Of a stretch of 64,000 nt of DNA, positions 40,387-55,945 are shown piece after piece. The position numbers and the translations under genes are program-made. This DNA comes from Kutzneria kofuensis (GTDB lineage: Bacteria > Actinomycetota > Actinomycetes > Mycobacteriales > Pseudonocardiaceae): contig NZ_JACHIR010000002.1 of the NCBI RefSeq assembly GCF_014203355.1, forward strand, positions 248,001-312,000, given 5' to 3'. The notes under the pieces are model-generated. The model worked only from the letters and a program-made list of their open reading frames with translations, ran no database searches and had not been told where the DNA came from. Numbering within the stretch: position 1 is the first letter of the stretch; each line of letters begins with the position of its first letter.

Positions 40387-41715
40387 TCAGTCCCGGCGCA
40401 GGGTGAACGCCAGCTTCAGGACCACCAGCAGCACCGTGCCGAGGATCAGCGGCTGGCCCAGGACCAGCTGAACCACGGTCGGCATCGCGTTGAGCGTCGA
40501 CGCGGGCACGAACAGCCCGCCGATCGACGTGATGAACGGGAAGCCGACCAGAATCAGGTTGTCGCGGGACCAGTGCACGTCCGAGAGCACGTCGATCGCG
40601 CTGGCGAACAGCACGCCGAACAGGACTGTCCCGGCCGCGGCCAGCACGGGTAGCGGGATCGCCTGCAGCAGCCGGTCGAACGGCCCGAGGCCACCGAGCA
40701 CCAGCAGGATGACGCCGGTGGCCAGGGTGACGTAGCGGGAGCCGACCTTCGTCACGCGCAGCAGGCCGATGTTGTCCGGGTAGGCCAGGGTGGACATGCC
40801 GCCGAAGACCGCGCCGACCGTGCTGCCCAGCACCTCGCCGAACACGCCCTGGGCCACCCGGTGCCCCGACAGCTCCTGGCCGCCCCATCGGGCCACGATG
40901 TCGTACGTCGCAATGCTTTCCGCGACCGCCGGCAGCAGCGTGACAAAGAAGATCAGCACCAGGTCGCCCCGCACCGCGAACCCGAACGGAAACGGCGTCG
41001 GCACCGTCACACCGAGGTTCTCCCCCACCGCCGCGAAGCTGGTCGGCGCGAGCAGCGCGTACACCAACGTGCCCGCGATCACCGCCACCAGCACCGCCCC
41101 TCGTCTCAGCAGCGTTCCCTTGGGCAGCAACGTCAACGCGATCACCAACGCCGCCGCCACCCCACCCGCCACCACGTTCACCCAGGGGAATCCCGGACTG
41201 TTCGGCGTGCCGATCCAGTTCGGCAACGCCGTGCTGGTCAGCTGCGTCGCCAGGGTCAACACCAGCACGCCGCAGATGATCGGGTCCCGGACGAACCGGG
41301 CCAGGTAGGCCACCGGCCCGAACCGCCGCGCCGGCACCGCCAGGACACACCAGATCAGCCCCGCGACGGTCATCGACCCGAACGCCGCTCCCAGCCCGCC
41401 CGGGCCATGGCCGACGGCCAACAACGCCGCCAGCGATCCCGCGTACGGCCCTTGGATGATCGGTAATCGCAGCAGCAGCACCGACTGCAGGATCACCACC
41501 AGCCCCGACGTCATGAACGTGACGCCGTACAGGTAGGCGGTGTCCCCCGCCGACAGCTTGAACGCCGTGCCGATCAGCGCGGGGAAGATCAGCAGCCCCG
41601 CCATGCCGAGGATGTTCTGTATCCCCAACCCGACCGCGCTCGACACGCGGACCTTGTCGTCGATGCCGACGTCGAACACGGAGACGGGAGCGTCGACGGT
41701 GCTGCGAACGGCCAT
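40387..41715 (-). CDS. NCS2-family nucleobase (xanthine/uracil-type) permease
   Basis: A 442-residue membrane protein with about 12-14 hydrophobic segments. Family marks include GLGIQNILGMAGLLIFPALI, QSVLLLRLPIIQGPYAG, PAVAESIATYDIV and FGGMSTLAYPDNIGLLRVTKVGSR, which resembles the conserved QN-x-G-x4-T-x-V region of NCS2 carriers. NCS2 proteins import purines, pyrimidines or related heterocycles by proton symport. Its place at the end of the molybdenum-hydroxylase operon makes it the likely uptake route for a heterocyclic substrate. Confidence 0.87.
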   Translation of the reverse strand: MAVRSTVDAPVSVFDVGIDDKVRVSSAVGLGIQNILGMAGLLIFPALIGTAFKLSAGDTAYLYGVTFMTSGLVVILQSVLLLRLPIIQGPYAGSLAALLAVGHGPGGLGAAFGSMTVAGLIWCVLAVPARRFGPVAYLARFVRDPIICGVLVLTLATQLTSTALPNWIGTPNSPGFPWVNVVAGGVAAALVIALTLLPKGTLLRRGAVLVAVIAGTLVYALLAPTSFAAVGENLGVTVPTPFPFGFAVRGDLVLIFFVTLLPAVAESIATYDIVARWGGQELSGHRVAQGVFGEVLGSTVGAVFGGMSTLAYPDNIGLLRVTKVGSRYVTLATGVILLVLGGLGPFDRLLQAIPLPVLAAAGTVLFGVLFASAIDVLSDVHWSRDNLILVGFPFITSIGGLFVPASTLNAMPTVVQLVLGQPLILGTVLLVVLKLAFTLRRD

Positions 41716-41738
41716 GTGCACTCCTGCGGGAATGAAGG

Positions 41739-42575
41739 TCAGCTGACGGGTCTGGCGCCGCGGAGGCGGGCGGCCCACCGTTCGAGGATTCCGGCCAGCA
41801 CGATGCGCAACAGCACGGACGCCTTCAACGGCGGGACACCGTCGGTGGCCGGCGCGGCAGGCGATGGCCCGGCGGCGGATTGCCCGGCGGTAGATGGCGC
41901 GGCGGTGGACGACACGGCGGTCGAAGGCGCTGCCGTGGTTGACGCCGCCGTGGATTGCCCGGCGGTGGATGACGCGGCCTTGGAAGGCGCGGCGGTGGAA
42001 GGTGCCGCCGTAGTTGACGCCGCCGCGGATTGCCCGTTGGTCGACGACGCGGCCTTGGAAGGCGCGGCGGTCGAAGGTGCCGCCGCGGATTGCCCGGCGG
42101 GAGGCGCGGTCGGTGTCGCGGCGGAATCGCCGTGTTCGATCCGGTCCCGCACCCGGCTCGCCAGTTCCCCGACCATCCGGCCGGAGACGTCGGCCATGAT
42201 GCCGCGGCCGAACTGCGCCAGCTTTCCCGAGATGGCCAGGTCGGTCGCCAGGACGACGGAAGCGCCGGAACCGGCGGGGGTGACGCGCATGGTGGCCCGG
42301 GCCTTGGCGGTGCCGGCGCCGCGGGTGTCCTTGCCCTCGGCCATGAGCACGGCAGTGCGAGCGGCGGGGTCGCGTTCGACGACCTTGGCCACGCCCTGGT
42401 AGGCGGCGGTGACGGGGCCGACCTTGATCTTGACCTTGCCCTTGTACGCGTCGTCGCCGAGGTCCTCGACCAGCTCGGCCCCGGGGAAGCAGGCCGCGAC
42501 GTTGTGGGCGTCCTGGAGGAACCGGTACACCTCGTCGGGGTCGGCGGCGACCTCGAAGGAGTTCTCGATGATCAT
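41739..42575 (-). CDS. CoxG-like SRPBCC protein with repetitive Ala/Ser/Thr tail
   Basis: A 278-residue partner protein of molybdenum hydroxylases. Residues 1-150 are a CoxG domain (IIENSFEVAADPDEVYRFLQ, CFPGAELVEDLGDDAYKGKV, SGKLAQFGRGIMADVSGRM). CoxG is known to help membrane anchoring of aerobic CO dehydrogenase. Residues about 155-250 are a low-complexity tail built from about three copies of a 25-residue unit (GQSAAASTTAAPSTAAPSKA plus ASSTA). A C-terminal stretch (PPLKASVLLRIVLAGILERWAARL) looks like a membrane-associating helix. The ATG overlaps the stop of the large-subunit gene by one base. Confidence 0.85.
   Translation of the reverse strand: MIIENSFEVAADPDEVYRFLQDAHNVAACFPGAELVEDLGDDAYKGKVKIKVGPVTAAYQGVAKVVERDPAARTAVLMAEGKDTRGAGTAKARATMRVTPAGSGASVVLATDLAISGKLAQFGRGIMADVSGRMVGELASRVRDRIEHGDSAATPTAPPAGQSAAAPSTAAPSKAASSTNGQSAAASTTAAPSTAAPSKAASSTAGQSTAASTTAAPSTAVSSTAAPSTAGQSAAGPSPAAPATDGVPPLKASVLLRIVLAGILERWAARLRGARPVS
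41866..42090 (-). repeat. 75-bp tandem repeat, three units, inside coxG-like gene
   Basis: Units at about 41866-41940, 41941-42015 and 42016-42090 share the core GACGCCGCCG-GGATTGCCCG and keep the frame, encoding the 25-residue Ala/Ser/Thr unit. The first unit is the most diverged and the last two nearly identical. A partial copy continues to about 42100. Confidence 0.85.
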
Positions 42576-44956
42576 CAGGGGGCCTTTCCTCCGGCGTCGG
42601 CGCCGGGCGAGGTGGAAGACGCGGAGGCCTCCGAGCCATGAGCGGCGGCGACGGCGTCGGCGATGCGGGCGGGGGTGACGGGGGCGCGGGTCACGCGAAC
42701 TCCCAGCGGGCGGAGGGCGTCCTCGACGGCGTTGGCGATGGCGGCGGGTGGCGGGACGGTGCCGCCCTCCCCCGCCCCCTTGGCGCCGAGCGGATTGAGC
42801 GGACTCGGCGTCTGGATGTGGAAGAGCTCGACCGGCGGCACCTCGGCGGACGACACGAGCGCGTAGTCGAGGTAGCTCGTGGCCTGCGGCGTGGCCTCGT
42901 CGTCGTAGACGGCCTCCTCGTACATGGCGTTGCCGAGCCCGTGGGCGAACCCGCCGAGCACCTGCCCGTCGACGAGCAGCGGATTGATCACGGTGCCACA
43001 GTCGTGGCCGATGACGTACTTGAGGATGGTGATCCCACCGGTCTCCGGATCGACCTCGACCATGGCGGCATGAGCGCCGCTGGCGTAGGCGGCCCGCTCG
43101 GGCGAGAAGTAGCTGGCGGTTTCGAGGCCGGCCTTCACCCCACGGGGCAGCGTGATGCCGTGCTTGCCGATGTTGGCGACCTGTGCGAGTTGCTGCAGCG
43201 ACACGGACTTCTCCCGGTCGCCGCCCAAACACACGCAGTCGTCGGCGAAGTCCACTTCGGACGGATCACAGCCGAGCAGGACGGCGGCGGTGTCGAGCAG
43301 CCGGGCCCGCATCTGCTTGGCGGCGTCGAACACGGCGGGACCGCAGGTGGCGGTGATGCGTGAGGCGAAGGTGCCCTGCCCGAACGGAATCCGCGCGGTG
43401 TCGCCGGTGGTGACGTCGATGTGCTCCATGCCGAGCCCGAGCCCGTCGGCGGCGATCTGGGCGTAGACCGTCTCGTAGCCCTGCCCCTGCCCGGCCGCGG
43501 CCAGCGTCACGAGGATCCGGCCCCGGTTGGTGAGACGGATCTTCGCCCCCTCGTACGGACCGAGCCCGCAGCCCTCCACGTACACGGCCAGACCGATGCC
43601 GACATACCGGCCTTCAGCGCGCGACCGAGCCTGCTCGCGGCGGGCCTCGTCGTAGCCGATGCGCTCCAGGGTTCCCTCGAGCAGGGCCGGGAAATCGCCG
43701 CTGTCGTAGGTCAGCGGGCTGCCGTCGCGGAAGGTGATACCCACCTGGTACGGGAACTCGTCGGCCTGGATCAGGTTGCGCCGCCGCACCTCGGCCGGAT
43801 CGAGGCCCAGGTGCGCGGCGATCCGGTCCATCATCCGTTCCATCACGAACACCGCCTGCGGCCGGCCCGCACCCCGCACCGACGAGGTCGGGACCATGTT
43901 GGTGTAGCAGGCCCGCAGTTCGATCGCGATGTTCGGGACCTTGTACGGGCCGGGCACCGTCGACGTCGTGATCGACGGAACCTGCAGACCGGCACAGTAC
44001 GCGCCCTGGTCGTGCTCGATCACGTCCTTGACCGCGAGCAGCCGGCCGTCGTCGTCGAACCCGACCTCGATCCGGTGCGTCTGCGAGCGTTCCATCATCG
44101 CCGAGACGAAGTTCTCCTGCCGGTCCTCGACCCACTTGACCGCGCGCCGCAGCTTCTTGGCCACCCACGGGATGACGACCTCTTCGCCGTAGAACTGGGC
44201 CTTCGGGCCGAATCCGCCGCCGACGTCCGACGGGGCGATGACCCGCAGGTCGTCCTCGGCCATCTCGTAGATCATGGACAGTTGCTGGCGGGCGTAGTGC
44301 GGCGACTGGGTGGTGTCCCAGATGGTCAGCTGGCCGGTCGCCGGCTCGAACCGCGCGGCGACGGCCCGCGGCTCCATCGAGTGGCCGCCGCCGCGCATCA
44401 GGAAGAACTCCTCGCTCAGCGTGTGCGGCGCGGTACGCAGCGCTTCCTCCGCGTCACCGGCCTTCTGGCTGAGCAGCACGGCCACATTGGACTCGTCACC
44501 CGAGTGCGCGAGCGGTCCGCCCGGCCGCAGCGCGATGGCGGTGGAGCCGACCGCCGGCAGCACCTCGTAGTCGACCTCGATCAGTTCGAGCGCGTCCTCG
44601 GCGACGTACCGCGACTCGGCGATCACGACGGCGAGGGGTTCGCCGACGTAGTGCAGTTCCTCCGGCGGCATCGGCAGCCGCGGGTAGTCGCGCAGCTCGG
44701 GATGCAGCACCTTGGGGGCCAACGGTTTCTGGATCTCCGCCAGGTCGGCGCCGGAGAACACGGCGACGACCCCGGGCAGCGCGAGGGCCTCGGTGGCGTC
44801 GAAGGCGGTGATCCGGGCGTGTGCGTGCGGGGAACGCAGGAATGCCGCCGCGAGCGCGTCCGGCAGGTCGAGGTCGTCGAGATACCGGCCGCGACCGGTG
44901 AGCAGCCGCTCGTCCTCACGCCGCGCCAGCCGTGCGCCGATCATCGTCTCACTCAT
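42575..44956 (-). CDS. Molybdenum hydroxylase large subunit (xanthine dehydrogenase/CoxL family)
   Basis: A 793-residue molybdopterin-binding catalytic subunit. The start IGARLARREDERLLTGRGRY is typical. DVGGGFGPKAQFYGEE contacts the cofactor, the active-site loop reads SVRGAGRPQAVFVMERMMD, and the catalytic glutamate lies in LGAKGAGEGG. True CO dehydrogenases carry AYRCSFR in that loop; the GAGR form marks the broader family of aromatic and N-heterocycle hydroxylases. The enzyme would insert water-derived oxygen into a ring carbon. The ATG at 44956 overlaps the small-subunit gene by 8 bases. Confidence 0.9.
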   Translation of the reverse strand: MSETMIGARLARREDERLLTGRGRYLDDLDLPDALAAAFLRSPHAHARITAFDATEALALPGVVAVFSGADLAEIQKPLAPKVLHPELRDYPRLPMPPEELHYVGEPLAVVIAESRYVAEDALELIEVDYEVLPAVGSTAIALRPGGPLAHSGDESNVAVLLSQKAGDAEEALRTAPHTLSEEFFLMRGGGHSMEPRAVAARFEPATGQLTIWDTTQSPHYARQQLSMIYEMAEDDLRVIAPSDVGGGFGPKAQFYGEEVVIPWVAKKLRRAVKWVEDRQENFVSAMMERSQTHRIEVGFDDDGRLLAVKDVIEHDQGAYCAGLQVPSITTSTVPGPYKVPNIAIELRACYTNMVPTSSVRGAGRPQAVFVMERMMDRIAAHLGLDPAEVRRRNLIQADEFPYQVGITFRDGSPLTYDSGDFPALLEGTLERIGYDEARREQARSRAEGRYVGIGLAVYVEGCGLGPYEGAKIRLTNRGRILVTLAAAGQGQGYETVYAQIAADGLGLGMEHIDVTTGDTARIPFGQGTFASRITATCGPAVFDAAKQMRARLLDTAAVLLGCDPSEVDFADDCVCLGGDREKSVSLQQLAQVANIGKHGITLPRGVKAGLETASYFSPERAAYASGAHAAMVEVDPETGGITILKYVIGHDCGTVINPLLVDGQVLGGFAHGLGNAMYEEAVYDDEATPQATSYLDYALVSSAEVPPVELFHIQTPSPLNPLGAKGAGEGGTVPPPAAIANAVEDALRPLGVRVTRAPVTPARIADAVAAAHGSEASASSTSPGADAGGKAP

Positions 44957-45425
44957 CGGACCGTCCCTTCGCGACGTCCACAACGGACCGGACAAGCCCG
45001 CTGTAGCCGGTGCAGCGGCAGATGTTGCCGCTCAACACCTCGCGGGCGTCGTCCTCGTCGCGAACGTTGTCCTCCCGCAGCGCGGCCGTCACGCTCATCA
45101 GAAACCCAGGCGTGCAGAACCCACACTGCAGCGCGTGATTACGCTTGAACGCCTGCTGCAACGGCGACAGCTCGCCGTCAACGGCCAGCCCCTCGACAGT
45201 TTCGACGACAGCACCGTCCGTCTGCACGGCCAGCATCAGGCACGACCGCGCCGCGACGCCGTCGACGATCACCGTGCAGGCGCCGCAGACGCCGTGCTCG
45301 CAGCCGACGTGGGTGCCGGTCAGGCGCAGCCTCTCGCGTAGGAAGTCGGCCAGGGTCATGCGCGCGTCGACGGCTTCGTCGTATGACTCGCCATTGACGG
45401 TGACGCTGAGAGTGTGGTCAGCCAT
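44949..45425 (-). CDS. Molybdenum hydroxylase [2Fe-2S] small subunit
   Basis: A 158-residue iron-sulfur subunit with both clusters intact. The plant-type ferredoxin cluster uses C42, C47, C50 and C62 (GCEHGVCGACTVI and RSC); the second uses C101, C104, C136 and C138 (QCGFCTPGFL and ICRCTGY). It passes electrons from the molybdenum centre to the FAD subunit. It overlaps the FAD subunit gene by 8 bases and the large subunit gene by 8. Confidence 0.95.
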   Translation of the reverse strand: MADHTLSVTVNGESYDEAVDARMTLADFLRERLRLTGTHVGCEHGVCGACTVIVDGVAARSCLMLAVQTDGAVVETVEGLAVDGELSPLQQAFKRNHALQCGFCTPGFLMSVTAALREDNVRDEDDAREVLSGNICRCTGYSGLVRSVVDVAKGRSDE

Positions 45426-46290: not shown

Positions 46291-47066
46291 CGGGTCTCCG
46301 TCACGCGACGCAGGTGCTGCCGGACGAGGTCGGCCAGCGCCGGCCGCTCGATGAGCGACATGTGCCGTAGGCCGGGCAGGATCTCCAGCTCGGCGCCAGC
46401 GATGCCGTCGGCGAGGGTGCGGGCCATGGACGGCGGGGTCGCGTAGTCGAGCTGGCCCACCATGACCAGCGTGGGTGCGGTGATCGCCGGCAGCAGCGGC
46501 CGGGAGTCCATGGCCCCCATGGCGATCGATGCCGCCGCGTGGGCCTCGCTGTTGGTTCGCAGGAAGATCTTGGCCACGCGGTCGACGTCCTCCGGGTGGG
46601 TCTCGGCGAACTCCGGCGAGAACCAGCGGTCGACCTGGAACCGCAGCTGGTTCGCCCGCGGCACGGTGACGGCCTTCCGCGCCCGTTCCGCCCACGCGGT
46701 GGCGGCGTCGTCGCCGTACCAGGCGGTGGTGTCGGCCAGCACGAGCGAGCGGACCCGTTCCGGGAAGCGGCCGGCGAAGTCGACGGCGACACTGCCGCCC
46801 ATCGACAGCCCGAGCAGGCTCGCCGACGGCAGGTCCAGGGCGTCGAGCGTGCGGCCGACATCGTCGGCGAGGTCGGAGATGGTGAACGGCTTGCCGTCCC
46901 ATGCGCTGTCGCCGTGTCCGCGCAGGTCGAGGGCGAACACCTGGAACTCGTCGGACAGCGCCTCGGCGAGCGGGGTCCAGAGCTCCCCGGACAGCGCCAA
47001 TGGATGCAGCAACACCAGCGGCTCCCCCACACCGCGGCGGCGGACGGCCAGCGGACCGGCGGTCAT
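46287..47066 (-). CDS. Alpha/beta hydrolase (enol-lactonase / NicD-like)
   Basis: A 259-residue alpha/beta hydrolase with oxyanion motif LLHPLALSGELW, nucleophile S88 in GLSMGG and a C-terminal histidine in LPGLRHMSLIERP. It resembles 3-oxoadipate enol-lactonases and the N-formylmaleamate deformylase NicD; which reaction applies cannot be decided by eye. It overlaps both neighbours by 4 bases, tying it to the hydroxylase and amidohydrolase. It probably opens or trims a ring-cleavage product. Confidence 0.85.
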   Translation of the reverse strand: MTAGPLAVRRRGVGEPLVLLHPLALSGELWTPLAEALSDEFQVFALDLRGHGDSAWDGKPFTISDLADDVGRTLDALDLPSASLLGLSMGGSVAVDFAGRFPERVRSLVLADTTAWYGDDAATAWAERARKAVTVPRANQLRFQVDRWFSPEFAETHPEDVDRVAKIFLRTNSEAHAAASIAMGAMDSRPLLPAITAPTLVMVGQLDYATPPSMARTLADGIAGAELEILPGLRHMSLIERPALADLVRQHLRRVTETR

Positions 47067-48058: not shown

Positions 48059-48224
48059 CTCCGCCGGTCGATTCGGTTGCCCCGACGCTAAGTTGACGCG
48101 GCCCGGCGGACCAGCGCGCTTTCCTGGCAGCACCGGTAAGGACTTCTAACAGCGCCAACCCTCGCGCCCGGCGCGGGTTCGTGCTGCGATGTCCGGACGA
48201 GTCCACACGGGAAAGGCGGCCGCC

Positions 48225-48836
48225 GTGACGGAGATCCGGAACGTGGTGGTGGCGATCACCGGCGCCAGCGGAGCGTGTCTGGGCGTGCGCATCCTGCAAC
48301 TTCTGCGCGAGCGCCCCGAGTTTCGCACGCACCTCGTGCTGTCCAAGGCCGGCATCCTCACACTGCGCCACGAATGCGACCTCACGGTGGCCGATGTCCG
48401 CATGCTCGCCGATGTCACGTACCGGCCCGGGGAGATCGGCGCGGCGATCGCGTCCGGCTCGTTCCCGGTCGCGGCGATGCTGGTCGCGCCCTGCTCGGTC
48501 AAGACGCTGTCGGCCATCGCCACCGGCTACACCGACGACCTGGTCAGCCGCGCCGCCGACGTCTGCCTCAAGGAAGGCCGACCGCTGCTGCTGATGGTGC
48601 GCGAGACGCCGCTGCACCTCGGGCACCTGCGGTCGATGGTCGCCGTGACGGAGGCCGGTGCGATCGTCGCCCCGCCGGTGCCCGCGTTCTACCGCCGCCC
48701 GCACACGGTCGACGACCTCGTCGACTACACGGCTCGCCGCGCGCTGGCGCGGGTGGGATTATCGGAGTTCGCGCCGGAGCCGTGGGACGGCGAGCTGAAC
48801 CAGGCCGAGCCCGCGGACCTGGTGGCCGGGCGGTAG
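48225..48836 (+). CDS. ubiX: UbiX-type flavin prenyltransferase
   Basis: A 203-residue UbiX/Pad1-family protein that makes prenylated FMN from FMN and dimethylallyl phosphate, the cofactor of UbiD decarboxylases. Motifs are VVVAITGASGACLGVRILQL, CSVKTLSAIATGY, VRETPLHLGHLRSM and PPVPAFY. The GTG at 48225 follows GGGAAAGG; the ATG at 48189 is the alternative. It is separated from its presumed client UbiD (51238-52668) by two regulator genes. It is the first gene of the rightward group ubiX, lysR, gntR. Confidence 0.92.
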   Translation: MTEIRNVVVAITGASGACLGVRILQLLRERPEFRTHLVLSKAGILTLRHECDLTVADVRMLADVTYRPGEIGAAIASGSFPVAAMLVAPCSVKTLSAIATGYTDDLVSRAADVCLKEGRPLLLMVRETPLHLGHLRSMVAVTEAGAIVAPPVPAFYRRPHTVDDLVDYTARRALARVGLSEFAPEPWDGELNQAEPADLVAGR

Positions 48837-48905
48837 GGCGAGGACCGGGGCGATTGCGGAAGGGCTGAGCCAACGGCGGGTCGGAGCGGGGCGGAAGGGG
48901 CCGGG

Positions 48906-49823
48906 GTGCTGGAGGCGCGGCGGCTGCGGATCTTCTCGGCGGTGGCCGAGCACGGCTCGTTCACCGCGGCCGCCGAGGCGCTGTTCATGACGCATTCCGC
49001 CGTCTCCCAGCAGATGGCGCTGCTGGAACGCCAGCTGGGCGTGCCGCTGATGATCCGCGGCCCCCGCGGCATCGAGCTCACGGAGGCGGGCAGGCTCCTG
49101 GCCGAGCGCAGCACCGGGCTGCTCGGGACGATCGCCACCATCGAGCAGGAGATGCTGGACCTCAAGGCGCAGCAGTCGTCGGTGCGCCTCGGCGCGTTCC
49201 CGACAGCCGGCGCCGACCTCATCCCCCGGGTCGTCCGCGAGTACCAGCGCCGCTACCCGGACACGAAGATCGTGCTGCGGTCGGCGCACGCCTCCGACAT
49301 GACGGCCGCGCTGCGCGACGGGTCGATCCACCTCGGCCTGGTCTGGGACTACGACTTCGATCCGCGCACGGTGCCCGCCGACGTCGAGTGGGTGCACCTG
49401 GCCGACGACCCGCTGTGCGTGCTGGTGCCGCTGGACCACCCCGTCGCCGGGGAGTCCGAGGTGGAGCTGCGGGAGCTGGCCGGCGAGACGTGGGTGGTCC
49501 GCAGTCACCAGCCGCCCTACGACGAGGCGTTCACGACGCTGTGCCGGCTGGCCGGGTTCGAGCCGCGGATCGGCTTCGTCACCGAGGACTACCTGTCGGT
49601 GCAGGGCCTGGTCGCGGCCGGGATCGGCATCGGAACGACCCCGCGGCTGGCGCTCATCGCGCAGCGGCCGGACGTGGTCGCCGTGCCGATCGCCGGCGCC
49701 ACGCCCCGGCGGCGCATCGCGGCCGTGCGGTTGCTGGACGCGCGTCATCCCCCAGCCGCGACTCAGATGCTGGAAGTATTGCGGTCGGTAACGGCGGCCA
49801 CCGACCCTCAGGAGAACTCTTGA
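48906..49823 (+). CDS. LysR-family transcriptional regulator
   Basis: A 305-residue LysR protein. The N-terminal winged helix reads RRLRIFSAVAEHGSFTAAAE then AVSQQMALLERQLGVPLMI; the effector domain starts near residue 92 (SVRLGAFPTAGADLIPRVV). It is the natural activator candidate for the divergent amidohydrolase-molybdenum hydroxylase operon and ubiX, with an aromatic metabolite as coinducer. It starts with GTG at 48906 and its stop overlaps the TTG of the following gntR. Confidence 0.93.
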   Translation: MLEARRLRIFSAVAEHGSFTAAAEALFMTHSAVSQQMALLERQLGVPLMIRGPRGIELTEAGRLLAERSTGLLGTIATIEQEMLDLKAQQSSVRLGAFPTAGADLIPRVVREYQRRYPDTKIVLRSAHASDMTAALRDGSIHLGLVWDYDFDPRTVPADVEWVHLADDPLCVLVPLDHPVAGESEVELRELAGETWVVRSHQPPYDEAFTTLCRLAGFEPRIGFVTEDYLSVQGLVAAGIGIGTTPRLALIAQRPDVVAVPIAGATPRRRIAAVRLLDARHPPAATQMLEVLRSVTAATDPQENS

Positions 49824-50542
49824 CCGTGCCGGAGAACGGCGACCGGCCCGGCAGCGACGTGCTGCGCCAGATGCTGCGCGACGGGCGCACCGACGTCTCG
49901 CTCGTGGACCGGATCGTGGAGGACCTGGCCCGGCAGATCATCGACGGCACGCTGCCGCCGGGCGCCGACGTCAACTCGGTCGAGCTGGCGAAGCGCTACG
50001 GCAGCAGCCGCACGCCGGTGCGGGAGGCACTGCTGACGCTGGAGCGCGAGGGCCTCGTCGACGTCCCGGCCCGCCGCCGGCCGCGGGTCGCGCCGGTCAC
50101 GCTCACCCAGGCGCGGGAGCTCTACGAGATCCGGGCGAGCCTGCACACGCTGGTCAGCGAGCTGATCGTCAGCAACGCTGACGACCAGGACCTCGAGGTG
50201 CTGCACGTCTGGCAGGGCCACCTGCGCGACGATGCGGCGCGCGGCGACGTCGACGCGTACTTCTGGCACAACGTCACGTTCCGCCAGGCCGAGGCGGAGG
50301 TGTCGGGGAACCGGCAGCTGACCCGGCTGCTCAGCTCGCTCGGGCTGCGGACGCTGCAGCTGCGGCACGTCAGCCTGTCGCTGCCGGGGCGGCTGGACCG
50401 CTCCGTGGAGGATCACGAGCGGCTGCTCGCCGCCTACGCCGACCGGGACGCGACGCTGGCCGCCGCCCTGACCCGCTCGATCATCATGAGGGGCCTGCAG
50501 GCCATCGAGGCGTCCGGATGGTCCGGTCTGGACTCAGACTAG
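49820..50542 (+). CDS. GntR-family regulator (FadR-type), copy 1
   Basis: A 240-residue GntR regulator. The winged helix covers about 30-95 (VDRIVEDLARQIIDGTLPPG, SRTPVREALLTLEREGLV) and the helical FCD effector domain follows (REL-YEIRASLHTLVSELI, DVDAYFWHNVTFRQAEAEVS). The TTG at 49820 gives a 4-base overlap with lysR and lies 5 bases from GGAG; the GTG at 49826 is possible. The protein is clearly paralogous to the convergent GntR gene whose end it overlaps by 9 bases. It probably senses a pathway carboxylate. Confidence 0.92.
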   Translation: MTVPENGDRPGSDVLRQMLRDGRTDVSLVDRIVEDLARQIIDGTLPPGADVNSVELAKRYGSSRTPVREALLTLEREGLVDVPARRRPRVAPVTLTQARELYEIRASLHTLVSELIVSNADDQDLEVLHVWQGHLRDDAARGDVDAYFWHNVTFRQAEAEVSGNRQLTRLLSSLGLRTLQLRHVSLSLPGRLDRSVEDHERLLAAYADRDATLAAALTRSIIMRGLQAIEASGWSGLDSD

Positions 50543-51238
50543 GCCGGACCGCTCGATCGCCCGGTACCCCCGCATCACCAGCGACCGGCTCACCGCCGCC
50601 GCCAGGTCGGCGTCGCGGTCGGCGTAGGCGTTGACCAGGCGCTCGTGGTCGGCGACCGAGTGCAGCAGCCGGCCGGGCAGCGACAGGCTCAGGTGCCGGA
50701 ACCGGTGCATCTGCAGCCCCAGCGAGCCGAGCCGGCGCTGCAGCTCGCCGTTGCGGGCCAGGCTCGACTCGGCGTTGCGGAAGCCGACGTTGTGCCAGAA
50801 GTACGCGTCGACGTCGCCCGCCTCCGCGTCCGCCGCCAGCAGGCCCTGCCACGCCCGCAGGCCGTCGATCTCCTCGTCGGTCGCGCGGGCCACCAGCAGC
50901 TCGCTGACCAGCGCGTACAGGCTGGCGCGGATCTCGTAGACCTCCCGCACCTGGGCCATGTGCACCGGGGACACGTACGGCCGGCGGCGCGGCGGGATGA
51001 TCACCAGCGACTCCCGTTCGAGCAGCAGCAGCGCCTCCCGCACCGGGGTCCGGCTGGTGCTGAACCGCCGGGCCAGCTCGGCCGAGTTGACCTCGTGGCC
51101 CGGCGGCAGCCGCCCCTCGACGATGCCGACCGCGATCTCCTGGAAGATCGTGAACGCCAGCGAGGAGCCGCCCTCCACCCCGCCCAGCGCCGTGAACAGC
51201 AGCTCCCGCCGGAGATCCGGGACGCCGGTGGCGGTCAC
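50534..51238 (-). CDS. GntR-family regulator (FadR-type), copy 2
   Basis: A 234-residue paralogue of copy 1, sharing blocks such as SRTPVREALL, REV-YEIRASLYALVSELL, GDVDAYFWHNVGFR and LSLSLPGRL-HSV-DHERL in the same order. Winged helix about 30-90, FCD domain after. The GTG at 51238 overlaps the UbiD stop (TAGTG), so it is translated with the decarboxylase and closes the leftward transporter operon. The two GntR genes converge and overlap at their 3' ends by 9 bases. Confidence 0.92.
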   Translation of the reverse strand: MTATGVPDLRRELLFTALGGVEGGSSLAFTIFQEIAVGIVEGRLPPGHEVNSAELARRFSTSRTPVREALLLLERESLVIIPPRRRPYVSPVHMAQVREVYEIRASLYALVSELLVARATDEEIDGLRAWQGLLAADAEAGDVDAYFWHNVGFRNAESSLARNGELQRRLGSLGLQMHRFRHLSLSLPGRLLHSVADHERLVNAYADRDADLAAAVSRSLVMRGYRAIERSGLV

Positions 51239-52668
51239 TAGCCGAGCACCTCGGGCCAACGCCGGCTCACCGACGCGACCAGCTCCGGGCTGGACTCCGC
51301 GACAGCCGGGAAGTCGCCCAGCCGCTCGTACGGGCGGCAGGCGTCGATGATCGCCCGGCTGTTGAACGCGATCTCGCCGGGCAGCGTCAGCGGGTCGACG
51401 CGGCTGCCCCACGTCCGCTTCATCACCTCGATGTCGAGCGACGGATCGGTCCGCCCGCACATCGCCCACATCACCTCGCCGAGGTCACGCGGGTTGACGT
51501 CGTGATCCACGACGACCGTGAACCGGTTCATGTAGGCCGCGCTCGGCAGCTGCGCCGTGAGGTACGCGGCCTGCCGGGCGTGCCCGGGGTAGCGCTGCTC
51601 GATCGCCACGATCAGCAGCGACCGCCCGCCGCCGGCCTCGTGCGCCCAGACGCCCCGCAGGCCGGGCAATCCGGTCTTGCGCAGCGAGTCCGTGATGATC
51701 GCCGACTTCATCACCGTGCGCATGTACGAGTAGTCGTGCGGCGGCTTGCCCGGCGGGGCGCCGAGCAGGATCGGGTTGTCGCGGTAGTACACCTTCTCGA
51801 CGTCGATCGTGAGGATCGGGTCGCGGGAGCCGGAGTAGTAGCCGGTCCACTCGCCGAACGGGCCCTCGGGGCGCTTGTCGTCCGGCCGCACCCAGCCCTC
51901 GATCGCGATCTCGGCGTCGTGCGGCAGCGGCAGCCCGGTCGCGAGGCCGGCCACCGTCCGCACCGGGGCGCCGAACATCGCGCCGACGTAGTCGTACTCC
52001 GAGACGTCGCCGGGCACCTCGACGCCGGCCGCCACCAGGTACGCGGGGTGGTGCCCGAGCGACGCGGCGATCGGCGCCCGGCCCTCGGCCTCGAACCAGC
52101 GGCGCAGGTGCTGGGCCCCGTGCTTGCCGGCTTCGATGTTGACGCTGGCCGACCGGCCTTCGTCCTGCACCTGCATCCGGTACGCGCCCAGGTTGATCCG
52201 CCCGGTGTCGTAGTCGCGGGTGACCACCGCGCAGCCGGTGCCGATGTAGCGGCCGCCGTCGCCCTCGTGCCAACGCGGCACCGGGAACTTCAGCAGATCG
52301 ACCTCGTCATCCACATTGGACAGCAGTGGCCCGTCCTCCACGGTGACGGCCTTGTGGTCACCGGCCCGCTCGATCCACTCCCCCGGCTTGACCGCCAGCG
52401 CCTCGACCAGGTCCTCGTCGGTGTTGTCCCAGCCCAGCCCGAGCACGGAGCCGAGCAGCCGCGGGTTGCTGACCGAGCCGGACAGCACCCGCAGGCCCGG
52501 CGCGTAGTCCTTGATGCCGTCGAACATCAGCGCCTTGGGCTGGCCGCGCCGGTAGTTGACCTGGGAGAGCGCGCCGATCTCCAGCTCCCAGTGGGCGCCT
52601 TCGACCGTCTGCAGCTCCCCGGCGGCCTCGGCTTCGGCCAGCCACGTGCGCAGGTCCGGGTCGCTCAT
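51238..52668 (-). CDS. UbiD-family prenyl-FMN-dependent decarboxylase
   Basis: A 476-residue reversible decarboxylase of the UbiD family, using the prenylated FMN made by UbiX. Cofactor and catalytic motifs are INLGAYRMQVQDEGRSASVN and IAIEGWVRPDDKRPEGPFGE (the Arg-Glu-Glu set), with WTGYYSGSRDPILTI after them. Family substrates are aromatic, heteroaromatic or unsaturated carboxylates; the substrate here is unknown. It follows the isochorismatase gene with a 4-base overlap (52665-52668). Length and motifs are complete. Confidence 0.93.
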   Translation of the reverse strand: MSDPDLRTWLAEAEAAGELQTVEGAHWELEIGALSQVNYRRGQPKALMFDGIKDYAPGLRVLSGSVSNPRLLGSVLGLGWDNTDEDLVEALAVKPGEWIERAGDHKAVTVEDGPLLSNVDDEVDLLKFPVPRWHEGDGGRYIGTGCAVVTRDYDTGRINLGAYRMQVQDEGRSASVNIEAGKHGAQHLRRWFEAEGRAPIAASLGHHPAYLVAAGVEVPGDVSEYDYVGAMFGAPVRTVAGLATGLPLPHDAEIAIEGWVRPDDKRPEGPFGEWTGYYSGSRDPILTIDVEKVYYRDNPILLGAPPGKPPHDYSYMRTVMKSAIITDSLRKTGLPGLRGVWAHEAGGGRSLLIVAIEQRYPGHARQAAYLTAQLPSAAYMNRFTVVVDHDVNPRDLGEVMWAMCGRTDPSLDIEVMKRTWGSRVDPLTLPGEIAFNSRAIIDACRPYERLGDFPAVAESSPELVASVSRRWPEVLG

Positions 52669-53378
52669 GCCACTGTCCTTCGCGAGGTCTGGCGGAAATG
52701 GTCGATCGCCGCGTCGGCGGTGATCACGTCCGCGTACTTCTGGTCGAGGTCGAACAGGCTGAGCCAGTGCGACGCCTCGAACCGGTCGAAACAGCAGTCG
52801 CCGACGACACCGATCCGGTAGCCCCGACTGCACGCGTCGACCACGGTCGAACGCACGCAGCCGCTGGTGGCCTCGCCGACCACGAGCAGCGTGTCGTGGC
52901 CGCCCATCCTCAGGACGGTGTCGAGCGGGGTGCCGTGGAAGCAGCTGGGCCCGATCTTCGCCAGCACGATGTCGTCCGGCCCGGGCTCCACTTCGGACAC
53001 GATGGCGTTCGGGTCCACCGTGGAGGCGCGCGGGGCGAGCGCCGGCTTGGGTTTCCGGTTCCAGCGGCCGTACCGCGCCGGAGTCTGGTGGAAGTAGATC
53101 ACCGGCGCACCCGCGTCGCGGGCCGCCGCGAGCAGCGGCGCGGTCCGGTCGACGGCGGCCCAGCCGTCCGCGCCGCAGGCGCTGGGCCAGTCCGGGACCG
53201 CATCGAGGATGTCCCGGCGCGGCAGGCCCAGCGCCGCGTAGTACAGGTCGACGACGATCACGGCCGGGGCGACCCCGAGACCGAACGGGCGTTGCTTGGC
53301 CCACGACGTCGCCGCCAGCACCGCGCGGTCGCGTTCGGTCAGGTACTTCGACCACTCCGCGGCGAACGGACCGGTCAT
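52665..53378 (-). CDS. Isochorismatase-fold amidohydrolase (N-carbamoylsarcosine amidase / maleamate amidase-like)
   Basis: A 237-residue cysteine hydrolase with the complete triad D44 (VIVVDLYY), K141 (VLAKIGPSCFHGT) and C174 (EATSGCVRST). The SCFHGT and TSGCVRST strings align by eye with N-carbamoylsarcosine amidases and the maleamate amidohydrolase NicF rather than true isochorismatases. It would remove ammonia from an amide, implying a nitrogen-containing pathway intermediate. It sits between the ABC transporter genes and ubiD, overlapping both by 4 bases. Confidence 0.88.
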   Translation of the reverse strand: MTGPFAAEWSKYLTERDRAVLAATSWAKQRPFGLGVAPAVIVVDLYYAALGLPRRDILDAVPDWPSACGADGWAAVDRTAPLLAAARDAGAPVIYFHQTPARYGRWNRKPKPALAPRASTVDPNAIVSEVEPGPDDIVLAKIGPSCFHGTPLDTVLRMGGHDTLLVVGEATSGCVRSTVVDACSRGYRIGVVGDCCFDRFEASHWLSLFDLDQKYADVITADAAIDHFRQTSRRTVA

Positions 53379-54334
53379 GACGCGGTCAGACTGTTGTCGA
53401 TGTACTTCGAGACGTCCGGCGGCGGTGTCGTCCTGGCGTTGGCCGCGGCCTCGTCGAAGGCCTGCTTGATCACCTTCTCGTCGACGGCCGGCGTCTTCGC
53501 CCAGACGTCGAGGAAGAAGTCGTAGGCGTACGAGGCGAGATCGGTGCTCTGCACGCCGCTGTACTTCTGGATGCTCTTCACGGTCTCGTTCTTGTGGCCA
53601 CGGATGTACTGCAGCGCCTCGGCTTCCGCCGCGACGAACCGCTTCACGACCTCGCGGTTGCTCTGCAGGTACCGGGACTGCACGGTGTACGCGCCGAGCG
53701 GGAACGGCAGGTTCGACAGCGCCGCCAGCCGGTGCGCGCCCTTCTCCCGGCTCTCCGTGCCGTTGGGCGGCTGGGTGAGGATCGCCGACACCGCGCCGCT
53801 GACCAGCGCCGCCACCTCGGCCGGGACGCCCTTGACGAACACCGCCGTGACATCGGCACGCTGGAGGCCGTTGGCCTGCAGCAGCGCGGTCAGGCCGAAG
53901 TCGCTCTCCGAGCCCGGTGAGGTGATGGCGACCTTCTTGCCCCTCAGCCCGGCCACGTCCTTGACGTCGGGACTGGCCCACATCTCCAGGTTGTAGTGCG
54001 GCTCGGACATCGCCACGTACTTCAGGTCCGCACCCTTCATGATCGCCGCCGCGGTGTCGGCCGCGACGCCGACGCCGATCTGCACGCTGTTGCTGGCCAG
54101 CCCGGCGACCAGCTGCGAGCTGTCGTTGAGCCGGGTCAGCTTCACGTTCAGGCCGTGCTTGGCGAAGATGCCGTAGTCCTGCGCGGTGTAGAGGTCGGAG
54201 TAGCCCGCGCCGAGCGCGGTGTAGCCGATGGTGACCGGCAGCGCGCCGTTGGCGTCGGCGGCAACCGTGCCGCCCGCGCAGCCGGTGAGGCCGACCAACA
54301 ACCCGGCGGCGACCAGTGTGATCCGGGTTCTCAT
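53375..54334 (-). CDS. ABC transporter substrate-binding lipoprotein (NMT1/SsuA-like)
   Basis: A 319-residue periplasmic-type binding protein with a lipobox ending at C19 (LTGC). Family marks include VTIGYTALGAGYSDLYTAQD, NSVQIGVGVAADTAAAIMKG, DVKDVAGLRGKKVAITSPGS and FVKGVPAEVAALVSGAVSA. Relatives bind sulfonates, thiamine precursors, phthalates or other aromatics. It is cotranscribed with permease and ATPase upstream and degradative enzymes downstream, so it very probably binds the pathway substrate. Confidence 0.92.
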   Translation of the reverse strand: MRTRITLVAAGLLVGLTGCAGGTVAADANGALPVTIGYTALGAGYSDLYTAQDYGIFAKHGLNVKLTRLNDSSQLVAGLASNSVQIGVGVAADTAAAIMKGADLKYVAMSEPHYNLEMWASPDVKDVAGLRGKKVAITSPGSESDFGLTALLQANGLQRADVTAVFVKGVPAEVAALVSGAVSAILTQPPNGTESREKGAHRLAALSNLPFPLGAYTVQSRYLQSNREVVKRFVAAEAEALQYIRGHKNETVKSIQKYSGVQSTDLASYAYDFFLDVWAKTPAVDEKVIKQAFDEAAANARTTPPPDVSKYIDNSLTAS

Positions 54335-55146
54335 TGCGCACCTGCCCAGTGGGTGAAGCGACGTTCGATGAGCCGGACGGCCCAGTTCAGCAACAGGGCC
54401 AGCACGGCGAGCAGGACGATCCCGGCCATCGCCGAGTCCATGTCGAAGTTGGACGTCTGCGTCTGCACGAAGTAGCCGAGGCCCTGGCTGGCCAGGAACA
54501 GCTCGGCCACGATCGCGCCGACCAGGGCGCGGCCGACGGCCAGCCGGACGCCCGCGAGGATGTACGGCAGCGTGGCGGGAAGTGCGATGGCGTAGAAGAA
54601 CCTGAGTCGCGGCGTGCAGAACACCGTTGCCACGCGGGTGTAGTCGCGGTCGAGGTTGCGGACGCCGGCGGTGATGTTGATGATCAGCGGCAGGATCGCC
54701 GCCCACACGATGACGATCACCCGCGAGGCGTTGTCGATGCCGAACCAGAAGATGATGATCGGCAGGAACATCACGTACGGCACCGAGTAGAGGATGTTGA
54801 CCATCGGCTCGGTCATGTCGTGCAGGATCCGGCTGCGGCCGAGCACCAGCCCGATCGGGATGCCCAGCACGAACGTGATGGCCAGGCCCCACACCAGTTC
54901 CAGGCCGGTGGCGCCGAGCGCCGGGAAGATCTCGCCGGTGCCGAACAGGTTCACCTCGGCCGCCGCGATGCGCGTCGGGCTGCTGCTGAAGGACACGTCG
55001 ACCAGGCCGACGGCCGCCGAGAGCTGCCACAGCGCCAGGACGATCGCGATGCCGGCCGCGCCGAGCAGGGCGCTACGGTGTCGCAGCGCCAAGCCGGACG
55101 GTGCTGATGGCCGCGCCATCGGGCGCGGGGGTGACGCCGTTGTCAT
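54331..55146 (-). CDS. ABC transporter permease (SsuC/TauC-like)
   Basis: A 271-residue membrane permease with about six spans. The ATPase-docking loop reads VRNLDRDYTRVATVFCTPRLR then FFYAIALPATLPYILAGVRL, typical of the nitrate/sulfonate/taurine class, and LGYFVQTQTSNFDMDSAMAG follows. It overlaps the ATPase gene by 74 bases and the binding-protein gene by 4. Confidence 0.93.
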   Translation of the reverse strand: MTTASPPRPMARPSAPSGLALRHRSALLGAAGIAIVLALWQLSAAVGLVDVSFSSSPTRIAAAEVNLFGTGEIFPALGATGLELVWGLAITFVLGIPIGLVLGRSRILHDMTEPMVNILYSVPYVMFLPIIIFWFGIDNASRVIVIVWAAILPLIINITAGVRNLDRDYTRVATVFCTPRLRFFYAIALPATLPYILAGVRLAVGRALVGAIVAELFLASQGLGYFVQTQTSNFDMDSAMAGIVLLAVLALLLNWAVRLIERRFTHWAGAQ

Positions 55147-55945
55147 GGTTCCTCGCTGGGGTCTTGTGGTGGAGGGCCGAGAGGATCTTGTCGCCGTAGG
55201 CCAGGAACTCGGCGCTGCGCCGCCAGGCGGCGTCGCGGGGCCGGGGCACGTCGATGACCACTTCGAGCGCGACGTGGGCCGGCGACGGAGAGAACACCAG
55301 CACGCGGTCGGCGAGCAGCACCGCCTCGTTCACGTCATGGGTCACGAACATCGCCGTCTTCTTCGCGCCGACCGTGCCCGCCTGCCAGATCCGCAGCAGC
55401 TCGTCCTGCAGGTTCTCGCGGGTCTGCGCGTCCAGCGCCCCGAACGGCTCGTCCAGCAGCAGCAACGTCGGGTCCGTCGCCAGGGCGCGGGCCAGGTTGA
55501 CCCGCTGCCGCATCCCGCCCGACAGCTCGTGCGGGTACTTCTTCGCCACCTTGGCCAGGCCGACGATCTCCAGCAGCTCCTCCGCCCGCCGCCGGGTCTC
55601 CGCCGTGAGCTTGCCCTGCACCTGGGGTCCGAACAGGACGTTGTCCAGCACCGTCCGCCACGGGTAGAGGGAGGCGTGCTGGAACACCAGCGACCGCTCC
55701 GGCCCCGGGCCGTCGATCGGCCGGCCGCCCAGTTCCAGGGCCCCGCCCGCGACCGGCACCAGCCCCGCCACCGCCTCCAGGAACGTGGTCTTGCCGCACC
55801 CGCTCGGGCCGACGATCACCACGAACTCCTCGTCGTGGATCTGCAGGTTCAGGTCCAGGCACGCGGTCGAGAACCCGCCCCCGCGCCGCGCCTTGTGCCC
55901 CAACAGCAGGTCGCGGGCGTCCAGGCAGATGTTCGTTCCGGGCAT
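55073..55945 (-). CDS. ABC transporter ATP-binding protein (SsuB/TauB-like)
   Basis: A 290-residue ATPase with Walker A GPSGCGKT at 46-53, Q-loop LVFQHASLYPW, signature LSGGMRQRVNLARAL and Walker B LLLLDEPFGALDAQT, then the H-loop FVTHDVNEA. A C-terminal tail of about 40 residues overlaps the permease start. It energises uptake of the substrate bound by the lipoprotein. It is the first gene of the leftward operon ATPase, permease, binding protein, amidohydrolase, ubiD, gntR; the promoter lies in the 55946-56374 region. Confidence 0.95.
   Translation of the reverse strand: MPGTNICLDARDLLLGHKARRGGGFSTACLDLNLQIHDEEFVVIVGPSGCGKTTFLEAVAGLVPVAGGALELGGRPIDGPGPERSLVFQHASLYPWRTVLDNVLFGPQVQGKLTAETRRRAEELLEIVGLAKVAKKYPHELSGGMRQRVNLARALATDPTLLLLDEPFGALDAQTRENLQDELLRIWQAGTVGAKKTAMFVTHDVNEAVLLADRVLVFSPSPAHVALEVVIDVPRPRDAAWRRSAEFLAYGDKILSALHHKTPARNHDNGVTPAPDGAAISTVRLGAATP

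What the first reader, a model, noticed from the sequence alone, without database searches (positions are those of the whole stretch)
40387..55945. Unassigned (N-hetero)aromatic carboxylate catabolic island
Seen: a three-subunit Mo hydroxylase with GAGR active loop, CoxG, NCS2 permease, ACMSD-like amidohydrolase, alpha/beta hydrolase, UbiX, UbiD, an amidase-type isochorismatase-fold enzyme with intact D44/K141/C174, and a full aromatic-type ABC importer, in three tightly overlapping gene groups around shared regulators. Known: in nicotinate and picolinate degradation, Mo hydroxylase, an amidohydrolase_2 decarboxylase, an alpha/beta-hydrolase deformylase and an isochorismatase-fold maleamate amidase act in series. 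Inference: a related pathway for a ring carboxylate, unusual in adding a prenyl-FMN decarboxylase and lacking any ring monooxygenase or extradiol/DHP dioxygenase in the island.
Basis: partly seen in the sequence, partly recalled or inferred. Interest (0 to 1): 0.75.

Follow-up and report, generated by a model that had tools for sequence, protein, structure and literature searches.

The report
Oxygenase-free heteroaromatic acid breakdown cluster
A soil actinomycete carries a conserved gene island that probably takes up a ring-shaped organic acid and breaks it down without oxygenases, by pairing a prenylated-flavin decarboxylase with a molybdenum hydroxylase and two further processing enzymes; the compound is not yet known.

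Summary
The island at 40387-55945 is real: the named genes are present with intact catalytic motifs, and a neighbourhood search supports one pathway. Around 80 relatives of the UbiD gene, 55 carry Mo-hydroxylase genes. In the nearest clade (27 loci) 22 have Mo-hydroxylase, 25 the alpha/beta hydrolase, 25 the ACMSD-like protein and 20 the core of a palindromic operator, mostly before the importer/UbiD operon. In eight of these, and in a genome of another family, UbiD, GntR, AH2, hydrolase and Mo genes form one same-strand run. In Streptomyces-type clusters UbiD, GntR and operator are kept, but the Mo-hydroxylase is of another lineage (p-AU 2.7e-56), which argues that decarboxylation and Mo-hydroxylation are coupled steps. 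The amidase is an accessory (8 of 27). The nearest known logic is the hmf furan pathway (UbiD plus Mo-hydroxylase, no oxygenase), not nicotinate/picolinate, but the CoA ligase and enoyl-CoA hydratase of hmf are missing and UbiD is not HmfF. Best reading: a CoA- and oxygenase-independent route for a heteroaromatic (perhaps di-) carboxylate, likely five-membered, opened by hydrolysis. Substrate unproven.

The parts
40387..41715 (-). NCS2-family permease (xanthine/uracil permease superfamily)
   Evidence: PF00860 4e-44; over the cut-off of the purine/pyrimidine permease subfamily model NF037981 only, below the equivalogs
41739..42575 (-). CoxG-like protein with Ala/Ser/Thr-rich linker and hydrophobic C-terminal segment
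   Evidence: PF06240 1.7e-18; sequence and tandem repeat
42575..44956 (-). Mo-hydroxylase large subunit (MoL), GAGR loop
   Evidence: PF20256, PF02738, PF01315; motifs
44949..45425 (-). Mo-hydroxylase 2Fe-2S subunit (MoS)
   Evidence: PF01799, PF00111
45418..46290 (-). Mo-hydroxylase FAD subunit (MoM)
   Evidence: PF00941, PF03450
46287..47066 (-). alpha/beta hydrolase, nearest to 3-oxoadipate enol-lactonase (abH)
   Evidence: NCBIfam PcaDC 197 and PcaD 182 bits, both below cut-off; best PDB hit 2xua 3-oxoadipate enol-lactonase 122 bits, an esterase (4uhc) next at 119
47063..48043 (-). amidohydrolase_2, ACMSD-like (AH2)
   Evidence: PF04909; best PDB hits ACMSD, E 2e-20; metal ligands and two Arg conserved
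48136..48150 (-). GTTAG-N5-CTTAC inverted repeat between AH2 and UbiX, LysR-type box (tentative)
   Evidence: one mismatch to GTTAG-N5-CTAAC; 0-3 mismatches at like places in 6 of 8 islands looked at
48225..48836 (+). UbiX flavin prenyltransferase
   Evidence: NF004685 and TIGR00421 over cut-off
48906..49823 (+). LysR-family regulator
49826..50542 (+). GntR-family regulator 1
   Evidence: conserved
50534..51238 (-). GntR-family regulator 2, last gene of the importer/UbiD operon
   Evidence: conserved
51238..52668 (-). UbiD-family prFMN decarboxylase; R164, E268, E273 by motif
   Evidence: TIGR00148 over cut-off; motif positions, alignment
52665..53378 (-). isochorismatase-fold amidase-like protein (Iso), D44/K141/C174
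   Evidence: PF00857 (given from 53336)
53375..54334 (-). ABC importer solute-binding lipoprotein, SsuA/TauA type
   Evidence: TIGR01728 104 bits, below its cut-off 163.5
54331..55146 (-). ABC importer permease
55073..55945 (-). ABC importer ATPase
56013..56024 (+). operator copy 1, GGTGTCGACACT (consensus AGTGTCGACACT)
56202..56213 (+). operator copy 2, ACTGTCGACACT

Best explanation
The island encodes an inducible, oxygenase-free and CoA-free catabolic route for a heteroaromatic carboxylate, probably one with a second acidic group and probably a five-membered ring (furan- or pyrrole-type). Steps: (1) the SsuA/TauA-type ABC importer, and perhaps the NCS2 permease, take up the compound [inferred]; (2) UbiD, with prFMN made by UbiX, removes a ring carboxyl group [family shown, substrate inferred]; (3) the three-subunit Mo-hydroxylase puts OH from water beside the ring heteroatom and passes electrons through 2Fe-2S and FAD to an acceptor, perhaps a quinone by way of CoxG [family shown, reaction inferred]; (4) the product is a cyclic enol ester or amide, which the PcaD-like hydrolase opens with water, so that no dioxygenase is needed [inferred]; (5) the ACMSD-like metal enzyme decarboxylates an acidic intermediate [site shown, step inferred]; (6) where present, the isochorismatase-fold amidase frees ammonia from an amide, either of an imported carboxamide or of an opened lactam [catalytic residues shown, place inferred]. 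Expression of the importer/UbiD operon is governed by a GntR protein at the duplicated AGTGTCGACACT palindrome [site conservation shown, binding inferred].
For: One pathway: UbiD, GntR, AH2, abH, MoM, MoS, MoL on one strand without an opposite-strand gene between them in L033, L034, L041, L043, L049, L052, L054, L097 and in G704 of another family; Iso lies in that run, between SBP and UbiD, in L041, L049, L054. Mo genes (any subunit) near 55 of 80 UbiD relatives: 22 of 27, 20 of 28, 6 of 8 and 7 of 17 by group, against 5 large-subunit matches, the island's own included, in the whole 10.4 Mb genome. Coupling: window-type and Streptomyces-type UbiDs are one clade (100/99) with the Streptomyces type inside, while their Mo large subunits are separate lineages (p-AU 2.7e-56) and gene order differs. 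Shared UbiD substrate likely: Y313, Y315, R317, K321 in 46 of 46 rows counted (26 + 14 + 6). Second acid group: K321 lies in the column of an HmfF arginine. Lactone logic: abH nearest to enol-lactonase. AH2 keeps H7, H168, H219, D286, R57, R230 in at least 93% of 30 rows. Operator core in 20 of 27 of the clade, 0 of 28, 0 of 8, 1 of 17 elsewhere. Precedent: hmf.
Against: No substrate, product or induction was measured. Ring size and heteroatom rest on chemistry, not on data. In 25 of 80 loci no Mo gene was found; 11 of these 25 are over 21 kb long (L045, L048, L056, L065, L072, L076, L081, L085, L087, L093, L105), so they are not merely cut, and UbiD of this kind can evidently work without a Mo-hydroxylase beside it. 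AH2 is in only 2 of 28 V2 loci, and abH in none of the 25 loci of the last two groups, so only UbiD plus Mo-hydroxylase is common to all groups. AH2 relatives at 35-38% in G593 and G921 have no UbiD or Mo genes in the stretches fetched. The enol-lactonase and ACMSD matches are below cut-off or distant. Optional RraA-like, nitrilase-like and Iso genes suggest that substrates differ between loci. HmfF's key histidine column holds Tyr here, which speaks against FDCA itself. The window's two operator copies are not above chance by number alone.
Confidence: 0.48

Rival explanations
1. A six-membered N-heteroaromatic route of the nicotinate/picolinate kind: Mo-hydroxylation of a pyridine carboxylate, UbiD and AH2 as decarboxylases, ring cleavage by an oxygenase or other enzyme encoded elsewhere, then amide hydrolysis by Iso.
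For: The Mo large subunit is about as close to quinoline 2-oxidoreductase and 6-hydroxypseudooxynicotine dehydrogenase (458 and 461 bits) as to its top solved hit, a CoxL (464 bits); Iso's best solved match is 3ot4/3uao, recalled as NicF maleamate amidase; isochorismatase-like genes also stand beside V2 clusters in 6 of 28.
Against: No ring monooxygenase or dioxygenase among the island's proteins, nor among the seven unlabelled protein families that recur in at least 3 of the 27 V1+VS loci (scanned); the rest of the genome was not searched for one. Iso not found in 19 of the 27 nearest loci, some of them cut by contig ends, and only at 40-42% or not at all in genomes G225, G233, G175.
Confidence: 0.2
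2. A furan-dicarboxylate pathway of the hmf kind with a CoA-free lower part (FDCA to 2-furoate to 5-hydroxyfuroate to 2-oxoglutarate).
For: UbiD, UbiX and a three-subunit Mo-hydroxylase, with CoxG in the Geobacillus case, is the set of the plasmid clusters taken here for hmf; MoS 56-58%, MoM 41-42%, MoL 36-37% to their subunits; a PcaD-like hydrolase suits the enol lactone.
Against: UbiD only 27-33% to HmfF and in another clade; V1 plus hmf large subunits as one clade is mildly rejected (p-AU 0.018); HmfD and HmfE absent from the islands; leaves AH2 and Iso without a role.
Confidence: 0.15
3. A benzenoid aromatic acid pathway in which UbiD decarboxylates a (hydroxy)benzoate or phthalate and the Mo-hydroxylase oxidises an aldehyde or a side chain.
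For: UbiD scores best with phenylphosphate carboxylase beta (247 bits, cut-off 469); a 39% relative sits on Aromatoleum EbN1 plasmid 2 near UbiD and CoA-transferase genes that are recalled as phthalate genes; MoL scores with glyceraldehyde dehydrogenase models.
Against: No ring-cleavage dioxygenase or CoA ligase seen to recur with it; benzenoid rings cannot be opened by the enzymes present.
Confidence: 0.13

Closest known systems
hmf cluster (5-hydroxymethylfurfural / 2,5-furandicarboxylate / 2-furoate degradation)
   Same: UbiD and UbiX with a three-subunit Mo-hydroxylase; CoxG as a separate gene in the Geobacillus cluster and as a weak match inside the Cupriavidus large subunit; oxygenase-free ring opening by water
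   Different: no CoA ligase (HmfD) and no enoyl-CoA hydratase (HmfE); UbiD of another clade; PcaD-like hydrolase, ACMSD-like AH2, optional amidase, ABC importer of another type and GntR control instead
nic/pic pathways (nicotinate, picolinate)
   Same: Mo-hydroxylase, amidohydrolase_2, alpha/beta hydrolase and isochorismatase-fold amidase families occur (pathway recalled; PicC paper seen only as a listing)
   Different: no ring monooxygenase or 2,5-dihydroxypyridine dioxygenase in the island; UbiD and UbiX added; amidase optional
ACMSD (2-amino-3-carboxymuconate-6-semialdehyde decarboxylase)
   Same: AH2 keeps metal ligands and two arginines
   Different: only distant similarity (E 2e-20); no kynurenine-type neighbours in the island
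Aromatoleum EbN1 plasmid 2 UbiD (WP_011255029)
   Same: UbiD 39% identical, ABC importer next to it
   Different: no Mo-hydroxylase gene in the 19 kb shown; function of that UbiD not established here

Membership tests
hmf furan pathway | HmfF-type UbiD | tested here: not met
   27-33% identity; separate clade; Tyr in the HmfF His column
hmf furan pathway | UbiX partner | tested here: met
   UbiX over cut-off
hmf furan pathway | HmfABC-type Mo-hydroxylase | tested here: inconclusive
   36-37/41-42/56-58% identity; one clade with hmf mildly rejected, p-AU 0.018
hmf furan pathway | furoyl-CoA synthetase HmfD | tested here: not met
   none among island proteins; Geobacillus HmfD at E<=1e-20 hits only L118 and L119 (flanks of G168, 26-28%) among 90 loci, and two AH2 loci without UbiD or Mo genes
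hmf furan pathway | HmfE enoyl-CoA hydratase | tested here: not met
   no hit at 1e-20 in 90 loci
nicotinate/picolinate pathway | ring monooxygenase and ring-cleaving dioxygenase | tested here: not met
   none among island proteins nor among recurring neighbours of the V1+VS loci; rest of the genome not searched
nicotinate/picolinate pathway | maleamate-amidase-type enzyme with Asp-Lys-Cys | tested here: inconclusive
   residues kept in 12 of 12 rows, top solved hit 3ot4/3uao, but activity unknown and gene optional
UbiD decarboxylase family | Glu-Arg-Glu triad | tested here: met
   R164, E268, E273 by motif
ACMSD-type decarboxylases | HxH, His, His, Asp metal site and two substrate arginines | tested here: met
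   present in the window-type and Streptomyces-type rows printed; three acidobacterial rows lack the first His; role of the arginines recalled
3-oxoadipate enol-lactonase (PcaD) | passes the PcaD equivalog cut-off | tested here: not met
   182.3 bits against 255.85
aerobic CO dehydrogenase | Cys-containing active loop (recalled) and equivalog score | tested here: not met
   GAGR loop; 484 bits against 991 for TIGR02416
Vdc non-oxidative hydroxyarylic acid decarboxylase | VdcD small subunit gene | tested here: not met
   no extra ORF of 60 aa or more called between island genes; VdcC score 216 against 650

The most novel reading that the evidence does not exclude
A widespread, undescribed class of heteroaromatic catabolism that needs neither oxygenase nor CoA: one conserved UbiD decarboxylase, with one substrate (possibly a pyrrole or furan polycarboxylate such as those from soil organic matter), is combined again and again in Actinomycetota and Acidobacteriota with interchangeable Mo-hydroxylases and hydrolases, so that ring opening is wholly hydrolytic and could run without oxygen.
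Probability: 0.3. Interest if true: 0.75.

Novelty: new variant of a known kind. Interest (0 to 1): 0.55.

Why it matters
It gives a defined gene set, a conserved operator and several independent partnerships with which the substrate of an orphan UbiD clade can be found. If right, it shows that the decarboxylate-hydroxylate-hydrolyse logic known from furans is a more general way to open heteroaromatic acids without oxygen, which bears on soil organic matter turnover and on biocatalysis with UbiD enzymes.

Tried and rejected
First gene callers misread some relatives; a per-locus codon model was used instead. Three own-genome Mo-hydroxylase rows in the tree were taken as longest open frames and are probably antisense; they, the solved chains and several long rows were left out. 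The GMC oxidoreductase and aldehyde dehydrogenase next door were considered as an HMF-oxidising upper pathway and dropped: no match to them in the close loci (0 of 27 each), best solved match of the GMC protein is a chloramphenicol-inactivating oxidoreductase (327 bits) with HMF oxidase at 152 or less. The own genome has no close copy of the nitrilase-like gene (best 31-34%). Loci not put in the UbiD tree (for example L038, L062, L063, L067, L069, L077, L079, L082, L086, L089) were assigned to groups by identity and gene context. In some searches Iso was given from 53336, 14 residues short. Micromonosporaceae neighbours (families c4, c13-c15, c20, c21, c31-c35) were judged by eye only. Ten paper searches (open-licence PMC only, some lists capped: 12 of 1,030, 12 of 171) listed no paper whose title or abstract start describes this gene set; four papers were seen by passages only (PMC8379154, PMC8988006, PMC7976604, PMC12064950), the rest as listings. 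Structure prediction and fold search were not used. A class-wide UbiD search at 1e-165 found only the own genome among 394. Labels such as 3uao = NicF, 8uem's species, roles of the ACMSD arginines and of the HmfF arginine, hmf names for the plasmid genes, and CoxG as quinone partner are recalled.
Full report
What is there. The window lies in a 10.4 Mb, 5-contig genome; the nearest named islands are in Amycolatopsis (L030, L038). They form a minus-strand block NCS2-CoxG-MoL-MoS-MoM-abH-AH2 (listed 3' to 5'), a plus-strand block UbiX-LysR-GntR1, and a minus-strand operon ATPase-permease-SBP-Iso-UbiD-GntR2. Catalytic features are intact: UbiD R164/E268/E273, Iso D44/K141/C174, AH2 metal ligands, MoL GAGR loop and the GAKGAGEGG stretch.

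Is it one unit? I fetched 80 loci that encode UbiD relatives from a collection of one genome per species (the tool kept the best 80 of 577 confirmed, itself a capped list) and mapped the island's proteins on them by tblastn at 1e-10 and half the query's length. Groups: V1+VS, the window's own UbiD clade, 27 loci; V2 with Micromonosporaceae, 28; Acidobacteriota, 8; the rest, 17. Mo-hydroxylase genes (any subunit) are present in 22 of 27, 20 of 28, 6 of 8 and 7 of 17 (all three subunits in 19, 20, 5 and 6). abH: 25 of 27, 18 of 28, 0 of 8, 0 of 17. AH2: 25 of 27, 2 of 28, 3 of 8, 0 of 17. Iso: 8 of 27, 6 of 28, 0, 0. UbiX: 14 of 27, 9 of 28, 0 of 8, 1 of 17. Some loci are cut by contig ends, but 11 of the 25 without Mo genes are over 21 kb long, so UbiD of this kind also lives without them. 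Only 5 large-subunit matches occur in the own genome, so proximity by chance would be of the order of one per cent (my estimate; loci are related, so this is not a formal test). UbiD-GntR-AH2-abH-MoM-MoS-MoL lie on one strand without an opposite-strand gene between them in L033, L034, L041, L043 (which adds LysR and an MFS gene), L049, L052, L054 and L097, and with LysR in G704 of another family. In the Streptomyces type the same gene kinds follow UbiD on one strand in another order. Among 297 genomes of the window's family 15 have a UbiD match at 1e-80, 5 of them (own included) at 83% identity or more: the island is patchy, as catabolic islands are.

Swapped hydroxylases. The UbiD tree puts window-type (V1) and Streptomyces-type (VS) loci in one clade (100/99) with VS nested among V1 rows. 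The large-subunit tree puts their Mo-hydroxylases in separate lineages; holding them together costs 207 log units, p-AU 2.7e-56. V2 and Acidobacteriota clusters carry further lineages, each fully supported; the acidobacterial one is sister to hmf (100/99; 96/96). That related UbiDs keep company with at least four Mo-hydroxylase lineages is the best evidence that decarboxylation and Mo-hydroxylation are coupled steps. The tree contains three faulty own-genome rows; one search does not. Only the V1-VS and V1-hmf groupings were tested by AU.

One substrate for UbiD? The stretch GAPPGKPPHDYSYMRxVMKSA is nearly invariant: Y313, Y315, R317 and K321 in 46 of 46 rows counted (26 V1+VS, 14 V2, 6 Acidobacteriota; the Micromonosporaceae and more distant rows were not counted, and Binatota rows differ). 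Y313 is in the column of PA0254 N318, which PMC7976604 (passages) equates with HmfF H297 and calls key for furan specificity; K321 is in the column of an HmfF arginine (its role recalled). I infer one shared substrate across these clusters, probably with a second acidic group, and not FDCA itself.

Control. Reading promoters of relatives side by side showed a palindrome AGTGTCGACACT. Its core AGTGTCGACA occurs in 20 of 27 V1+VS loci (two or more copies in 16), 0 of 28 V2, 0 of 8 Acidobacteriota and 1 of 17 others; the reversed pattern in 1, 0, 0 and 0; five other control patterns in 0-6 of the V1+VS loci and 0-2 elsewhere, the 6 being for a one-base variant of the pattern itself. Of the 37 copies in the 20 loci, the nearest gene start is ATPase, SBP or UbiD for 26, the nitrilase-like gene before the importer for 3, and a gene on the other side for 8 (my count). 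The window has two one-mismatch copies at 56013-56024 and 56202-56213; by number alone this is not above chance in the window (2 found, 2.2 expected with up to two mismatches) nor is the core in the genome (6, control 7), so the claim rests on conserved place. The sites go with the GntR genes. The AH2/UbiX gap instead holds a GTTAG-N5-CTAAC-like repeat at 48136-48150, seen with 0-3 mismatches at like places in 6 of 8 islands (79 of 2000 shuffles of the window's stretch reach two mismatches), perhaps a LysR box.

What the parts say about chemistry. abH is nearest to 3-oxoadipate enol-lactonase, below the equivalog cut-off and with an esterase close behind. AH2 is nearest to ACMSD with H7, H168, H219, D286, R57 and R230 in at least 93% of 30 rows; the three acidobacterial copies lack the first His of HxH. 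AH2 relatives at 38% and 35% in G593 and G921 stand without UbiD or Mo genes, so AH2 alone is no marker. Iso is nearest to amidase-type isochorismatases, but genomes with otherwise like islands lack a close copy (G225 42%, G233 40%, G175 none at 1e-20), so it is an accessory. In L053 and L097 an RraA-like gene stands at Iso's place, and in L032, L049, L054 and L116 a nitrilase-like gene precedes the importer. More distant UbiD clusters (L098, L100, L101, L103, L106, L107) carry a dihydroorotase/allantoinase-type cyclic amidohydrolase (one member scanned), again a hydrolytic ring opener. Of the seven unlabelled families that recur in at least 3 of the 27 V1+VS loci (XdhC, SDR, RraA-like, beta-lactamase-fold, zinc alcohol dehydrogenase, nitrilase-like, O-methyltransferase) none is an oxygenase.

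Reading. A Mo-hydroxylase makes a cyclic ester or amide tautomer beside a ring heteroatom; a hydrolase opens it. As yardsticks I took seven stretches of five plasmids as hmf, by UbiD match to Pelotomaculum HmfF (47-57%) and by gene content; their annotations do not carry hmf names. Membership fails on HmfF, HmfD and HmfE. Five-membered rings suit this best, since their hydroxylated forms are hydrolysable lactones or lactams; this is established chemistry applied by inference. The substrate remains open.

Verdict. Real, conserved and coherent; a new variant of the UbiD plus Mo-hydroxylase kind; not shown to be a nicotinate/picolinate relative. Ten searches of an open-licence library (lists partly capped, most papers seen only as listings) showed no description of it, which does not exclude one elsewhere.

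Noticed in passing
window 56422-61017: A GMC oxidoreductase (nearest solved: chloramphenicol-inactivating oxidoreductase) overlaps a succinic-semialdehyde-dehydrogenase-type ALDH over its cut-off, followed by a PdxR/MocR-type regulator over its cut-off; GMC and ALDH not found beside the close relatives of the island.
   Followed up: partly
window 41875-42085: 75-bp tandem repeat inside the CoxG gene that codes an Ala/Ser/Thr-rich linker before a hydrophobic C-terminal segment.
   Followed up: partly
L001 (G000:C1:2820099-2820341): A second UbiD with a UbiX-like gene just before it in the own genome, 31% identical to the island's UbiD.
   Followed up: no
L146 (G000:C1:460603-462765): A Mo-hydroxylase large-subunit relative in the own genome with one in-frame TGA; broken gene or sequencing error not examined.
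   Followed up: no
L098, L100, L101, L103, L106, L107: Distant UbiD clusters in Binatota and Deltaproteobacteria pair Mo-hydroxylase genes (none seen in the short L107) with a dihydroorotase/allantoinase-type cyclic amidohydrolase.
   Followed up: partly
L120 (Aromatoleum EbN1 plasmid 2): An unassigned UbiD, 39% identical to the island's, with its own ABC importer, between two other UbiX/UbiD pairs and CoA-transferase genes.
   Followed up: no
L052: Saccharopolyspora soli carries two different Mo-hydroxylase sets in one UbiD island.
   Followed up: no
L053 and L097: An RraA-like (aldolase/decarboxylase family) gene occupies the place of the amidase gene between SBP and UbiD.
   Followed up: partly
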